Assembly: GCF_001305595.1 (NCBI RefSeq)
Contig: NZ_CP012401.1
Location: 2,429,001-2,493,000, forward strand
DNA length: 64,000 bases
Origin: Azospirillum thiophilum
Lineage (GTDB): Bacteria > Pseudomonadota > Alphaproteobacteria > Azospirillales > Azospirillaceae
Reading direction: 5' to 3'
Position 1 is the first letter of the stretch. Each line of letters begins with the position of its first letter. The notes beneath the pieces were generated by a model. That model saw only the letters and a program-made list of their open reading frames with translations. It did not search any database and was not told the origin of the DNA. Made by a program: the position numbers and the translations under genes. This document shows, in pieces, positions 53,684 to 57,761 of this stretch.

Positions 53684-53876
53684 GGACATCGCTCCGGCAG
53701 CGGAAGGCAAATGAGGGTGTCGGTGATGCTTGGTCGGCGAGGCTTGGGTTCCTTCTGCCCTGTCGGTGTTAACGGAGGGTTGACACCGTCCATTGGTCAC
53801 ACGCCTTCCCCCTTTGCGCGGGTCGAGCTATCCTTTCGCGTAAGAAGCAGTCCGGGCCGGAGGCCGAATCATTCCC

Positions 53877-54614
53877 GTGTCGAAAGCTGAATTGCCCAAA
53901 CACGAAGCCGCGACCGATCCGCCAACAGCCGGACTGGACCGTATCGCGTTGCTTCGACCGCTGACGCCCGAACAACGAGCCGCGGTGGCGCGTCAGTGTC
54001 GGTGGCGTCGTTTCAGCGCCGATGAACAGTTGATCGACCATTGGGGCGATACCCGCGATGTCGCCTTTGTGGTCGAAGGGCGGGTCAGGGTGCTGAGCCA
54101 TTCTGCCGGCGGGCGCGAGATCAGCTTCAGCGACATCGACGCTGGTGAGCCGGTGGGGGAGATGTCGGCGTTGGATGGGCGGCCACGCTCCGCGTCCGTC
54201 GTGGCGCTGGCGGATGGGGCACTGGTCGCCTTCCTGCCGGCGCGTCCGTTCCAGGAACTGGTGACCGGACATCCGGAGCTGGCGCAGGCCATGTTGCTGC
54301 GGCTGTGCGATAAATTGCGCGGTGCGACCGACCGCATCATGGAGTTGTCGACGCTGGGCGCCAACAATAGGGTTCATGCGGAGCTGTTGCGCCTTGCAAA
54401 GCGTGGCAAGCGACAGGGTATCGTCGCGATCATCGCGCCGATTCCCGTCCATTCCGACATCGCGGCCCGCGTCAGCACCACGCGTGAAACCGTTGCCCGC
54501 GTCCTGAGCGACCTGACCCGCGATGGTATGCTGGAACGCCGTCCGGACGCGCTGGTGGTCCGCGACCTTCCAAGGCTGGAGATGCTGGTCGAGGATGTGC
54601 GCGGTGCAGTGTGA
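53877..54614 (+). CDS. Crp/Fnr-family transcriptional regulator
   Basis: 245 residues, GTG start at 53877. Cyclic-nucleotide-binding fold (LIDHWGDTRDVAFVVEGRVRVL, GEPVGEMSALDGRPRSAS near the phosphate-binding cassette, about 95-112) and a C-terminal HTH (SDIAARVSTTRETVARVLSDL, about 195-217). The GEMSALDGRPRSA cassette keeps Glu and Arg as in cAMP-binding proteins. The Fnr Fe-S cysteines are missing. Ends in a strong terminator. Confidence 0.9.
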   Translation: MSKAELPKHEAATDPPTAGLDRIALLRPLTPEQRAAVARQCRWRRFSADEQLIDHWGDTRDVAFVVEGRVRVLSHSAGGREISFSDIDAGEPVGEMSALDGRPRSASVVALADGALVAFLPARPFQELVTGHPELAQAMLLRLCDKLRGATDRIMELSTLGANNRVHAELLRLAKRGKRQGIVAIIAPIPVHSDIAARVSTTRETVARVLSDLTRDGMLERRPDALVVRDLPRLEMLVEDVRGAV

Positions 54615-54640
54615 CGCGCCAAAGGATGAGTCTGAAAAGA

Positions 54641-54690
54641 AAAGGCCGCGGCGGTCCGAATGAACGGACCGTGCCGCGGTCGCCTTTTTT
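54641..54690 (+). terminator. Rho-independent terminator
   Basis: AAAAGGCCGCGGCGGTCCG, short loop, CGGACCGTGCCGCGG with TCGCC and then TTTTTT: a long stem with one bulge 27 nt after the Crp-type gene. The leading A-run could let it also end the reverse-strand transcript of the small-protein pair. Confidence 0.9.
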
Positions 54691-54756
54691 CTTGCCGTTT
54701 CCTCACCATGAACTCCGCCCGAACCCTCGTCCGGCCGAATAACGGTGTTTTGCGGG

Positions 54757-54954
54757 CTAGTGGTGCAGTGCGTGGAACAGAATGGCGGCCGGGGTGGCGT
54801 TCGCCCAATCCGTCAGAAAGGCACCGACCGGATGGAGCAGGATCGCCGCCGGGGTGGCTTCGAGCCAATCGGCGATGAAGTCGCGGACTGGATGCAGGGA
54901 CGGAGTGTCGCCGTGGAGGCTGTGGCCGTCGCGGTGAAGACTGAGCGTGCTCAT
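54757..54954 (-). CDS. Small protein with two 20-residue repeats (member 1)
   Basis: 65 residues. After a 20-residue histidine-rich leader (MSTLSLHRDGHSLHGDTPSL) come two adjacent 20-residue repeats: HPVRDFIADWLEATPAAILL (21-40) and HPVGAFLTDWANATPAAILF (41-60), identical at 13 of 20 positions, then HALHH. The shared core is F-x3-W-x2-ATPA. No known family was recognised. The next gene upstream has the same plan, so this is a real gene family. The amphipathic repeats may pack against each other or a membrane. Confidence 0.75.
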   Translation of the reverse strand: MSTLSLHRDGHSLHGDTPSLHPVRDFIADWLEATPAAILLHPVGAFLTDWANATPAAILFHALHH

Positions 54955-55002
54955 GGTTGAGTCCCCGTTGGCAAAAGGGAAGGGGTGAAAGGCGCGTTGA
55001 TG

Positions 55003-55197
55003 TCAGCGCTTCAGCATGCTCAGGACCATGCCGGCTGGAGTCGCTGCGGCCCATTCGCGCAGGAAAGCGGTTGTTGGACGCAGCACCAGATAGGCCGGGG
55101 TCGCTTCAAACCAAGCGGCCGGAAATTCGGCGATGGCATGCAGGGCATCAGTCGATACATGGTTGGCGGTGTCGGTTTGGAAAGTGGTGGTGGACAT
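55003..55197 (-). CDS. Small protein with two 20-residue repeats (member 2)
   Basis: 64 residues with GGAGA 8 nt before ATG 55197. Same architecture as its neighbour: MST start, 19-residue leader, then two 20-residue repeats HAIAEFPAAWFEATPAYLVL (20-39) and RPTTAFLREWAAATPAGMVL (40-59), then SMLKR. Conserved F, W and ATPA occupy the same repeat positions as in member 1. The leader has two histidines instead of five. First gene of the pair; the gap is 48 nt. A possible promoter lies in the AT-rich stretch 55220-55250. Confidence 0.77.
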   Translation of the reverse strand: MSTTTFQTDTANHVSTDALHAIAEFPAAWFEATPAYLVLRPTTAFLREWAAATPAGMVLSMLKR

Positions 55198-55468
55198 GAT
55201 CGGTCTCCATCAGGCTGTTGAGTAGACTATATACTGGTATACCCAATGCCAAATACGCTTCCTCTGCATTGCTGAATGCTGCAAAAATTACAGCTTCCCC
55301 AAGATTTTCTTCGGCAGAACATCTTTGTGGCAGATATTCAGTTATGCTGACGATGCGTCCACCTTCTTTTGTCGTGGCGATCCTGAAGGTGTCCGGATGA
55401 ATGGGTGAAAAGCTGGTTGATCAAACCAATGTCTTGACAGCGATCATCGAAAAAACGAATCCAGGTCC

Positions 55469-55858
55469 ATGATTCAGTACATTGGCCCCGATCCCCTCCG
55501 CAGCTTGTATGACGCCGTGCAGACCCTGCGGCGTGAGCCTGCTGCTGCACCCGAAGCCTCCCGTACGGCAAAGCTGCTGGCTCAGGGACGTGCCCGTATG
55601 GCCCGGAAGGTCGGCGAGGAGGCGATCGAAGTTGCGATCGAAGCCATGCGCGGCGACCGCGACGCGCTGGTGATGGAGGCGGCAGACCTTCTCTACAATC
55701 TGGTCGTACTGCTTGCCGACCTGGACATCGCCCCCGATGAAGTTTTAGCGGAGTTGCGTCGGCGAGAAATGGCATTTGGCATTGCCGAAAAGCTGCCGAA
55801 GCCCGACGATCTTACTAACAACGTTGCTGTCGGGCCGGTAAAGCGAGGCAAGCGGTGA
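55469..55858 (+). CDS. hisE: Phosphoribosyl-ATP diphosphatase-like protein
   Basis: 129 residues. MazG-like all-alpha fold with the HisE signature KLLAQGRARMARKVGEEAIE (about 36-55) and EAADLLYNLVVLLADLDI with ELRRRE (about 71-99); the Glu and Asp residues bind Mg2+. HisE hydrolyses phosphoribosyl-ATP in histidine synthesis. It is not beside other his genes here. Alphaproteobacterial HisE is often found at the end of hisBHAF, so this isolated and slightly long copy could be a paralogue with another nucleotide substrate. Confidence 0.78.
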   Translation: MIQYIGPDPLRSLYDAVQTLRREPAAAPEASRTAKLLAQGRARMARKVGEEAIEVAIEAMRGDRDALVMEAADLLYNLVVLLADLDIAPDEVLAELRRREMAFGIAEKLPKPDDLTNNVAVGPVKRGKR

Positions 55859-55883
55859 GCCGTTTCTTTGAGACTCGATCTGC

Positions 55884-57761
55884 TTAGATGTTCTCGACAT
55901 CCCGTGGAAAGACGAGCTCAAAGCGCGTACCGCCACGTTGGGTAAAGCGGTACTCACCCTGGATTTGCTGGGTGAAGGCTCTAATCAGGTCCATGCCCAT
56001 CGATCGCCGACCGGTTCCTGCTGGTGCCACCCCCTGTTCGGCACAGCCGGTGCCGTCATCCTCGACTGTGAGCTTCAGAAAATTGTCCTGTGCATTGACG
56101 GTGATCGTGATGATGCCGGCATGGCGATCGGCGAAGGCATGTTTGAAGGCGTTCGACACCACCTCGTTCAGGATCAGCGCAAAGGGAACCACCCGGTTAA
56201 GGTCGATGCTAAGCGGTTCCACTTGGTGCCGAATCATGATCTCGCGCCCCGGCCGGCGGTGGAAGCTGCTGAGATGGCCGGCCAGCGCCTCAATGAAATT
56301 GTCGAGCCGGACGGACGATACTCCCGTGGACCGATAAATCTGCTCATGGATCAGTCCCATTGTGTTGATACGGCTCAGCGCTTCGCTGAATGGTCCCTCC
56401 AACTCCGGCGTACGCTGGGCCTGTAATTCCAATAGGCTCAGGATGACCTGGAGGTTGTTCTTCACCCGGTGGTGAACGTCTCGCAGCAGCACCTCCTTTT
56501 CAGCCAGTGTCTGGTCCAGATGGCGGGTGCGTTCGGCGATGCGACTTTCAAGCGCTTCGTTGACGCATCGCAAGGCTTCCTGTGCGTCGGCGGCCTGACG
56601 CGACCGGCGCAACGCGATGCCGCCTAGCAGGACCAACAGGCACAACGAGGGGATGGCGAACAATGCATAGGGCTTCACCCTGTCACGCCATGCCGTCTCG
56701 ACGGAGGTGATGTCTGTTCCGTATACTACGTAGATAGGCAGGTTCGGAACCTTGCGGCGAGCCAGAATCCGTTGTGCACCGTCGAAGGAGGTCACGATGC
56801 GGACGACTCCATTCTCTTCCGTGCCCTTGATCAACTCTGGGTATCGGCCGATGTTGACGCTGTCCGGTGCGGCGCTCGACGGCTCGCGCACCAGCACTTC
56901 GCCGTCCTCCCGCAGCAGCAGGACGACGTCTTGTGGATCGTGCAGGACCGATCGGTAGAAATCGGTGAAATAGCTCGGCTCCAGCGAGATCTGCACCACC
57001 CCGTGGAACCTGTGGTCGGTGGATTCCATCCGACGGCTGAGGGTGAAGATGACCTTGGACATGAGCTTGCCGCTCAGGCGCGGACCGAAATAAACCTGAT
57101 CATTGCTCGCCCGATGTGCCTGAAAATACGCACGGTCCGCTACGTTCAGCGGGCGCATCGGCCATTCGAAGCTGCTGGCGCGCATCCGCCCGGTCTCGTC
57201 GGCGATCCAATAGGACTGTACCTCCGGTGCTTCGGCAGCCATGGCCTTCAACCGCTCGTGCAGCAGGGGGGAGGAGTCGACGCGCTCCCAGCCGAGATCG
57301 TCGATCATCCATTCGATATGGGACAATGTCGTTGCGTGGATGCCCAGCGTCTTGGCGGCATGCTCTTCCAGAACGCGGGCGATGGCGACGCTGCGGCTCT
57401 CCGCCTCCTCGATCACTTGATGGCGGTATTGGTGGGCCGCGATGGCCAGCAGGGCAGCCGTCAGAGTGACTGCGACAGCCAGCAGGGCCAGAACGGCGGG
57501 CGACGCCGCCTGTCGCCGCTCTCGGGCAGTGCCCCGCGCATTTTGCGGCATTCGATCATTGCTTTGGCGGCCATTGGTTCGGTTCCCACCGGCTTGCCGG
57601 CCATCCGCTTGGCGAAGGCCGTTGTCCGTGGCATCGGGTTCGTTGCTTATCCCAGAGATTGTCTCAGGTTCCTGCGCGGACCGGTTCGGGTGCGGAACGT
57701 TCCGCATGCCGGTCCGATCCTCTGCGGCGTGCGCGTGCTGATCGAAACCGGGAGAGGTCAT
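55884..57761 (-). CDS. Membrane sensor histidine kinase (Cache, HisKA_2 type)
   Basis: 625 residues. A long polar N-terminus, membrane segment 1 (about 88-109), periplasmic dCache sensor (about 115-355; YWIADETGRMRASS, DRAYFQAHR, YFGPRLSGK), membrane segment 2 (about 363-385), coiled coil, then the HisKA_2 phosphoacceptor region LRDVHHRVKNNLQVILSLL and an HATPase domain (LNEVVSNAFKHAF, VEDDGTG). The family often signals to stand-alone receivers. Start uncertain: ATG 57707 or 57551 would remove the polar leader. Convergent with hisE, 25 nt apart. Confidence 0.9.
   Translation of the reverse strand: MTSPGFDQHAHAAEDRTGMRNVPHPNRSAQEPETISGISNEPDATDNGLRQADGRQAGGNRTNGRQSNDRMPQNARGTARERRQAASPAVLALLAVAVTLTAALLAIAAHQYRHQVIEEAESRSVAIARVLEEHAAKTLGIHATTLSHIEWMIDDLGWERVDSSPLLHERLKAMAAEAPEVQSYWIADETGRMRASSFEWPMRPLNVADRAYFQAHRASNDQVYFGPRLSGKLMSKVIFTLSRRMESTDHRFHGVVQISLEPSYFTDFYRSVLHDPQDVVLLLREDGEVLVREPSSAAPDSVNIGRYPELIKGTEENGVVRIVTSFDGAQRILARRKVPNLPIYVVYGTDITSVETAWRDRVKPYALFAIPSLCLLVLLGGIALRRSRQAADAQEALRCVNEALESRIAERTRHLDQTLAEKEVLLRDVHHRVKNNLQVILSLLELQAQRTPELEGPFSEALSRINTMGLIHEQIYRSTGVSSVRLDNFIEALAGHLSSFHRRPGREIMIRHQVEPLSIDLNRVVPFALILNEVVSNAFKHAFADRHAGIITITVNAQDNFLKLTVEDDGTGCAEQGVAPAGTGRRSMGMDLIRAFTQQIQGEYRFTQRGGTRFELVFPRDVENI

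What the first reader, a model, noticed from the sequence alone, without database searches (positions are those of the whole stretch)
54757..55197. Two tandem tiny proteins built from paired 20-residue repeats
Both ORFs (65 and 64 residues) start with MST, have a leader of about 20 residues and then exactly two 20-residue repeats with a fixed F-x3-W-x2-ATPA core (four copies in total; 13 of 20 identical within member 1). The repeats, the shared architecture and a good ribosome binding site on member 2 argue for real genes. I know of no family with this motif. They could be membrane-active peptides, small regulators or a structural/metal-binding pair (histidine-rich leader in member 1).
Basis: partly seen in the sequence, partly recalled or inferred. 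Interest (0 to 1): 0.75.

Follow-up and report, generated by a model that had tools for sequence, protein, structure and literature searches.

The report
Tiny helical proteins of oxalate regulon
Two overlooked neighbouring genes in an Azospirillum soil bacterium make tiny proteins built from a repeated helix, and they carry the same DNA switch as the genes for eating oxalate, a common plant acid, which suggests that they are unrecognised helpers or tuners of oxalate use.

Summary
In detail: both ORFs (65 and 64 codons, minus strand) have two 20-residue F-x3-W-x2-ATP repeats. The tandem pair occurs in 13 of 37 same-genus genomes (dN/dS about 0.33); 31 of 37 carry some family member, often a one-repeat gene. 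Pfam and NCBIfam do not know the proteins. New is the promoter: 65 of 67 distinct family genes (gene B left out) have GGYATNNGGTATACCA, with at most two mismatches, 50-79 nt before the start. In the window's genome 6 of the 7 other sites (up to one mismatch) stand before genes of the oxalate clusters: oxalate/formate antiporter, gntR-oxc-frc, a PAS-frc operon, panE-CBS-pntAB, a GNAT and a CBS gene. All 31 genomes with family genes have frc; the five genomes without frc have neither family genes nor sites, a pattern that needs at least three changes on a one-gene tree. In two species the gene lies inside the oxalate cluster. Best reading: small helical proteins under an oxalate-responsive GntR regulator, acting as accessory or regulatory peptides in oxalate use. 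Regulon membership is well supported by sequence; regulator, signal and molecular action are inferred.

The parts
55003..55197 (-). Gene A: 64-aa protein, leader plus two F-x3-W-x2-ATP repeats; first gene of the two-gene operon
   Evidence: orthologues; median dN/dS 0.336
54757..54954 (-). Gene B: 65-aa protein of the same architecture; second gene, 48 nt after gene A, no element of its own
   Evidence: in 16 distinct B-type genes the best match to the element has 5-7 mismatches; median dN/dS 0.320
55235..55250 (-). Putative GntR-type operator GGCATTGGGTATACCA, shared with genes of the oxalate clusters
   Evidence: no binding data
55226..55231 (-). Putative -10 hexamer TATAGT (inferred from the promoter alignment; no consensus -35)
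   Evidence: alignment, promoter listing; one search finds no consensus sigma-70 promoter
55271..55294 (-). Upstream block GCTGTAATTTTTGCAGCATTCAGC, conserved in front of family genes; a possible activator site
   Evidence: a match to its first 11 bases occurs in 45 of 67 family promoters
55204..55208 (-). Shine-Dalgarno-like GGAGA of gene A
   Evidence: sequence
54961..54966 (-). Shine-Dalgarno-like GGGGAC of gene B
   Evidence: sequence
54639..54690 (.). GC-rich hairpin with U-rich flanks between gene B and the convergent crp/fnr-type gene: putative terminator
   Evidence: -31 kcal/mol, z -3.0; 1 of 200 shuffles as stable; one search lists one terminator-like site there, on the + strand only, where 0.7 are expected by chance in the region

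Best explanation
The two ORFs are a real two-gene operon. They encode members of a genus-restricted family of very small, helical proteins that belong to the bacterium's oxalate regulon. A GntR-family regulator encoded in front of oxc-frc most likely binds GGYATNTGGTATACC in the promoter and, when oxalate or a product is present, lets the small proteins be made together with the oxalate/formate antiporter, formyl-CoA transferase, oxalyl-CoA decarboxylase, the PanE-type reductase, transhydrogenase and formate dehydrogenase. Each repeat puts F, W, A, Y/A and L on one face of a helix; this face probably docks on a partner (a transporter, enzyme or sensor of oxalate or redox metabolism) and tunes it. 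Shown: genes, purifying selection, shared promoter element, co-occurrence, linkage in two species. Inferred: that the GntR protein is the binder, that it represses, which compound is the signal, and the docking role (docking role about 0.35).
For: Homologues and selection. Element in front of 65 of 67 distinct family genes within 2 mismatches (47 exact, 14 with one, 4 with two), against 7 of 13,400 shuffled upstream regions; absent before 16 of 16 second genes. In the own genome 8 sites with up to one mismatch (reversed-pattern control 2): 1 family gene, 6 genes of the oxalate clusters, 1 other place. Genes named by curated models over their cut-offs: TIGR04259, TIGR03253, TIGR03254, TIGR01504; formate dehydrogenase gamma NF004638 stands behind a two-mismatch site. 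Co-occurrence in 37 genomes: family genes and frc in 31, neither in 5, frc alone in 1, family gene alone in 0 (Fisher p 1.4e-5). The frc-less genomes have 0 sites each and need at least 3 changes on a one-gene tree. The exception G025 gives no hit for the neighbouring DUF502 gene and only hits of 49-53% identity for the neighbouring PRA-PH gene, so that stretch may be missing from its assembly. In A. soli (L243) and Azospirillum sp. TSO22-1 (L242) the order is gcl-gntR2-pyk-family gene-frc.
Against: No expression or binding data. The pattern was drawn from 20 family promoters, so its presence there is by construction; the link to oxalate genes is the independent part. With up to two mismatches the own genome has 18 matches and the reversed control 21, so the enrichment shows only at one mismatch or less. 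All family genomes are one genus, so p values overstate independence. Some sites stand by genes with no known oxalate role (L200; L202 at 1542; four genomes with GGGATACGGTATACCA). In 20 further family loci of 9-11 kb no oxalate enzyme or transporter of my reference set was seen. Family genes have an upstream block that one search does not find at the oxalate sites of the own genome, so a second regulator is likely. The AlphaFold model is weak (mean pLDDT 66.7, pTM 0.28) and gives helices but no fold or partner.
Confidence: 0.72

Rival explanations
1. The proteins are truncated, repeat-expanded offshoots of DUF1127-type small proteins and act as those do, by binding a sensor kinase or RNA; the oxalate link is only the condition in which they are made.
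For: One-repeat proteins align over their whole length with the 45 N-terminal residues of 73-aa relatives (hhalign P 1.6e-13), whose C-terminus resembles DUF1127 (hhalign P 1.3e-4; 8 of 9 members score at or above the best of 1000 shuffles). Outside the genus the 73-aa profile weakly reaches DUF1127-like proteins (7 of 37 genomes, E 5e-8 to 0.01). A. tumefaciens small DUF1127 proteins bind the sensor kinase PhoR (PMC12501420, passages).
Against: hhalign probability for the 73-aa relatives against DUF1127 is only 26%, and 0.2% for the one-repeat proteins; Pfam gives no DUF1127. The 25 of 30 DUF1127 loci that the script resolved show no such element. The window proteins lack the DUF1127 core.
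Confidence: 0.3
2. The ORFs are incidental and the locus makes a regulatory RNA.
For: Small size; strongly conserved DNA around the promoter.
Against: The conserved block lies upstream of the inferred -10; substitutions respect codons and dN/dS is about 0.33; no Rfam match up to E 1 in 53700-56000.
Confidence: 0.05
3. Membrane-active peptides (toxin-like or membrane-stress peptides).
For: Hydrophobic, aromatic repeats with prolines.
Against: Charged residues within each repeat, moderate hydrophobic moments and purifying selection, several copies in some genomes, promoter element of a catabolic pathway.
Confidence: 0.1
4. The shared element is bound by a different regulator (the second GntR paralogue next to oxlT2, or another protein), and the small genes answer to a signal other than oxalate, such as glyoxylate or formate.
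For: Two GntR paralogues lie in the own cluster (L039 1045-1737, L040 11028-11717); sites also precede CBS, GNAT and formate dehydrogenase genes; in A. soli and TSO22-1 the gntR2-type gene is the near one.
Against: In the own genome only gntR1 has the element in front of it, gntR2 has none; gntR1-type genes with the element were also seen in G005, G007 (two loci), G012, G020, G027 and G034.
Confidence: 0.3

Closest known systems
DUF1127 (PF06568) small proteins, e.g. A. tumefaciens SDPs, YjiS, CcaF1
   Same: Tiny proteins of alphaproteobacteria, several paralogues per genome, conserved Trp; the 73-aa relatives resemble DUF1127 at the C-terminus
   Different: Window proteins lack the DUF1127 core and any Pfam hit; they have repeats and the oxalate-type element instead
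GntR-regulated catabolic operons (UxuR/ExuR-type operators, recalled)
   Same: Palindromic GGTATACC-type site near the promoter; the regulator gene has the site in front of its own operon
   Different: The regulon here is oxalate/formate/glyoxylate and includes unannotated small proteins
YfdX of the enterobacterial frc-oxc locus (recalled)
   Same: Protein of unclear role tied to oxalate genes
   Different: Recalled as a larger, periplasmic protein; no similarity tested

Membership tests
DUF1127 (PF06568) | Match to the 37-residue Pfam model over its cut-off | tested here: not met
   No Pfam match for the two window proteins; none to DUF1127 for three 73-aa relatives
DUF1127 (PF06568) | Remote homology of the 73-aa relatives to DUF1127 | tested here: inconclusive
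   hhalign P 1.3e-4 but probability 26%; 8 of 9 at or above the best of 1000 shuffles
VtlR-controlled DUF1127 genes | VtlR box CAATGCAGCCATGCA (PMC12595884, passages) in the promoter | tested here: inconclusive
   Best match 11 of 15 in the window promoter, 8-12 of 15 among paralogue promoters, in varying orientation and place
Oxalate regulon of this genus | Element GGYATNNGGTATACCA in the promoter | tested here: met
   Exact in the window; 65 of 67 family genes (gene B left out) within 2 mismatches
Oxalate regulon of this genus | Phyletic match with frc | tested here: met
   31 both, 5 neither, 1 frc only, 0 family gene only, of 37
Oxalate regulon of this genus | Induction by oxalate through the GntR protein | not testable with these tools
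   No expression or binding data at hand
Membrane-active peptides | Strong amphipathic or transmembrane segment | tested here: inconclusive
   Windowed hydrophobic moment 0.02-0.43 in the two window proteins
Metal-binding peptides | Binding of metal by a conserved histidine-rich leader | not tested
   Gene B leaders stay histidine-rich with shifting positions; no binding test possible

The most novel reading that the evidence does not exclude
A dedicated family of small proteins controls or organises oxalate catabolism: copies expand from one to several per genome, and the repeats double, to tune a specific partner (antiporter, CoA enzymes, transhydrogenase or formate dehydrogenase), giving oxalotrophy its own small-protein control layer.
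Probability: 0.35. Interest if true: 0.75.

Novelty: new variant of a known kind. Interest (0 to 1): 0.6.

Why it matters
Oxalate is a major plant and soil acid, and Azospirillum are root-associated bacteria (general knowledge). If right, a set of largely unannotated small genes becomes a testable part of oxalate use, with a named operator, a named candidate regulator and a clear growth condition. It also shows that promoter sharing plus joint absence can place orphan small proteins in a pathway when the protein sequence alone says nothing.

Tried and rejected
Pfam and NCBIfam and Rfam gave nothing useful for the proteins or the locus. A link of the upstream block to the VtlR (LysR) box of DUF1127 genes looked tempting but is not consistent across paralogues. 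My first genus-wide promoter pattern had the wrong spacing and found nothing in 37 genomes; I used a shorter one afterwards. Weak hits with 111- or 129-aa frames (L042, L054, L055, L079, L080) and others (L070, L071, L075-L078, L081) do not look like family members and were dropped by eye. The site GGTATTGGGTATCCCA occurs 10 times in G088 (10 of its 11 hits) and looks like an unrelated repeat. AlphaFold gave helices only, so I did no fold search. Literature: searches are search listings; passages only were read of PMC12595884, PMC11975290 and PMC12501420. None of the listings showed a paper on this family or on this regulon in Azospirillum; most subscription journals are not in the library.

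I then corrected: the metal-binding verdict (gene B leaders do stay histidine-rich), the control, the number of plasmid records, the wording on tree changes, unassigned sites and out-of-genus hits.

Full report
OBSERVATION. Both ORFs exist at the stated coordinates on the minus strand. Gene A (55003-55197, 64 aa) is transcribed first, gene B (54757-54954, 65 aa) follows after 48 nt. Each has a leader of about 20 residues and two 20-residue repeats with F-x3-W-x2-ATP; 13 of 20 positions are identical between the repeats of gene B (counted by hand). The DNA copies in gene B are 70% identical in register. Downstream lies a GC-rich hairpin shared with the convergent crp/fnr-type gene (z -3.0); the terminator scan lists one site there, on the plus strand only, with 0.7 expected by chance in the region. 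The neighbours are a crp/fnr-type regulator, a PRA-PH protein and a HisKA_2 histidine kinase.

FAMILY. A search of 61 genomes with protein A gave 13 full-length relatives including the window's own, all in the same genus, each with a gene B behind it: 13 of 37 same-genus genomes. Other genomes of the genus have one-repeat proteins of 43-46 aa and 64- to 73-aa relatives with a C-terminal extension. With an alignment of all types (14 rows), 31 of 61 genomes match at E <= 0.01, all 31 among the 37 of the genus. With the 73-aa relatives alone as profile, 46 of 82 genomes of the order match: 39 of 45 in the genus and 7 of 37 outside it, the latter weakly (E 5e-8 to 0.01); the four of these that I read (L157, L160, L164, L166) match in the DUF1127-like part and show no such promoter element. 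dN/dS medians are 0.336 (78 pairs of A) and 0.320 (45 pairs of B; 3 of the 13 B sequences dropped for unequal length). Mean repeat identities (A1-B1 0.54, A1-A2 0.42, A2-B2 0.49, B1-B2 0.48, 7 A and 7 B sequences) suggest, weakly, that the repeat doubled before the gene did. Three A. brasilense plasmid records have no annotated feature under their match; other records there carry no annotation at all, and the 64-aa MAYASAH type is annotated as hypothetical protein in seven (the PLSDB gene table is incomplete).

RELATION TO DUF1127. The one-repeat proteins match the first 45 residues of the 73-aa relatives (hhalign P 1.6e-13). The 73-aa relatives match a DUF1127 alignment made here from 10 sequences only weakly (P 1.3e-4, probability 26%; 8 of 9 members score at or above the best of 1000 shuffles), and the one-repeat proteins do not (probability 0.2%). 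Pfam reports no DUF1127 for any of them. So the window proteins are not DUF1127 members; a distant common origin is possible. In A. tumefaciens small DUF1127 proteins bind PhoR (PMC12501420, passages read), which makes 'small protein that docks on a partner' a fair model.

PROMOTER. Aligning the upstream regions of 20 family genes showed a long conserved block with GGYAT-NN-GGTATACCAG. The own genome has 18 places within two mismatches, no more than the reversed-pattern control (21), but besides the family gene seven of the 18 lie before genes of oxalate or formate use or of the oxalate clusters: panE, oxlT, a GNAT gene, a CBS gene, gntR-oxc-frc, a PAS-frc operon and fdsG. With GGYATNNGGTATACCA and up to one mismatch the own genome has 8 sites (control 2): the family gene, six in the oxalate clusters, and one elsewhere at C4:147265. 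The site before gntR lies between it and a divergent IclR-type gene, so it may serve both. Named by curated models over their cut-offs: oxalate/formate antiporter TIGR04259, formyl-CoA transferase TIGR03253, oxalyl-CoA decarboxylase TIGR03254, glyoxylate carboligase TIGR01504, transhydrogenase alpha NF006942, PanE-type 2-dehydropantoate 2-reductase (NF005089, TIGR00745), formate dehydrogenase gamma NF004638. The GNAT, PAS, CBS and PntB labels are mine, by eye. That such PanE proteins can be oxalyl-CoA reductases is recalled. The GntR protein matches no regulator model over its cut-off (best TIGR03338, below it).

In six further genomes of the genus (G005, G007, G012, G020, G027, G034) the same pattern has 9-18 hits each, some of them both strands of one palindrome, against 0-1 per strand for the control. 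In the regions that I fetched around these hits, sites lie before panE, gntR1-type genes, oxlT-type genes, GNAT, CBS2 and family genes, and in G034 before fdsG. Not explained: GGGATACGGTATACCA in G005, G007, G012 and G020, between an alpha/beta hydrolase gene and a gene of unknown role; one site in G005 (L200) beside unrelated genes and one in L202 at 1542. Of three genomes of other genera, G088 had 11 hits, 10 of them one repeated sequence, G103 one and G091 none.

Over all fetched loci there are 67 distinct family genes other than gene B. In 65 the element, with its first base 50-79 nt before the ATG, has at most two mismatches (47 none, 14 one, 4 two); one has three mismatches and one, directly behind another family gene, has none of it. 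In 16 distinct B-type genes the best match has 5-7 mismatches, as expected for the second gene of an operon. Mononucleotide shuffles of the upstream regions reach two or fewer mismatches in 7 of 13,400 cases. The 20 promoters are among the 67. The upstream block GCYGTAATTTTT... has one exact match in the own genome, at the family gene; matches with up to two mismatches (7) are not above the control (6), and none of the 7 lies at an oxalate site. So a second input specific to this family is likely.

CO-OCCURRENCE. Among 37 genomes of the genus, 31 have both a family gene and frc, 5 have neither (G002, G009, G029, G031, G036), 1 has frc only (G025) and none has a family gene only (Fisher p 1.4e-5). 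The five frc-less genomes have 0 promoter sites each, while frc-bearing G000, G018, G025 and G032 have 7-12; of three genomes of other families in that call G037 has one, G043 two and G051 none. On a tree of the neighbouring DUF502 protein (30 rows: 29 of the 37 genus genomes and one outgroup) the frc-less label needs at least three changes, gains or losses; it is a one-gene tree with 12 of 27 inner branches open. G025 lacks a DUF502 hit and a close PRA-PH hit, so its assembly may miss the locus. In G029, G031 and G036 the aligned parts of the crp and PRA-PH genes lie 62-103 bases apart with no family gene between. Outside the genus, 1 of 24 genomes has frc (G043), without the family.

LINKAGE. 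In A. soli (L243) and Azospirillum sp. TSO22-1 (L242) the one-repeat gene stands between pyk and frc in the order gcl-gntR2-pyk-family gene-frc, with further sites before frc. In 20 further loci of 9-11 kb around family genes no oxalate enzyme or transporter gene of my reference set was seen; four showed a PAS/chemoreceptor-like match.

HOW IT MOST LIKELY WORKS. The element lies between the upstream block and the inferred -10, a usual place for a GntR repressor (general knowledge); release by oxalate or a product would switch on the operon with the oxalate pathway. AlphaFold predicts helices 9-32, 35-52 and 54-63 with breaks at the prolines but no fold (mean pLDDT 66.7, pTM 0.28). On an ideal helix the conserved residues F25, W29, A32, Y36 and L39 fall within 80 degrees on one face; P34 may bend it. 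This suits docking on a partner. What the partner is, is not known; the antiporter, transhydrogenase, formate dehydrogenase or a sensor are candidates. Regulon membership I hold at about 0.85, docking or tuning of a partner at about 0.35.

NOVELTY. The proteins are in no family of Pfam or NCBIfam as searched here, and literature searches (listings only) showed no description. As a kind of thing, small accessory proteins in a metabolic regulon are known; here the family, the repeats and the oxalate link appear new.

Noticed in passing
L066 1174-1293, L219 (G012:C107) and L262 from 5232: A further small-protein subfamily MTYAT...FMxAWxEKSRLxG of about 40 aa; in L219 it carries the element exactly, in L262 with three mismatches, in L066 it follows directly behind a 73-aa relative.
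   Followed up: partly
L041 6783-7280 (own genome C1): A 165-aa protein that looks PAS-like by eye stands between the operator and frc, as first gene of that operon.
   Followed up: no
L201, L208, L213, L223: A conserved variant site GGGATACGGTATACCA lies between an alpha/beta hydrolase gene and a gene for a short protein of unknown role in four genomes.
   Followed up: no
window 55271-55294 (-): An upstream block GCTGTAATTTTTGCAGC conserved before family genes; it may bind an unknown activator. A stretch overlapping it resembles the VtlR box at 11 of 15 bases.
   Followed up: partly
L250, L255, L259, L260: Family genes near genes similar (37-40% identity) to the PAS/chemoreceptor-like protein of the own oxalate cluster.
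   Followed up: no
L231, L233-L238, L240, L241: An in-frame ATG four codons upstream (METxM, MESxM) makes the true start of gene A uncertain in these genomes; in the window that ATG is out of frame.
   Followed up: no
L110 (G037): A 184-aa open frame with two DUF1127 units in tandem.
   Followed up: no
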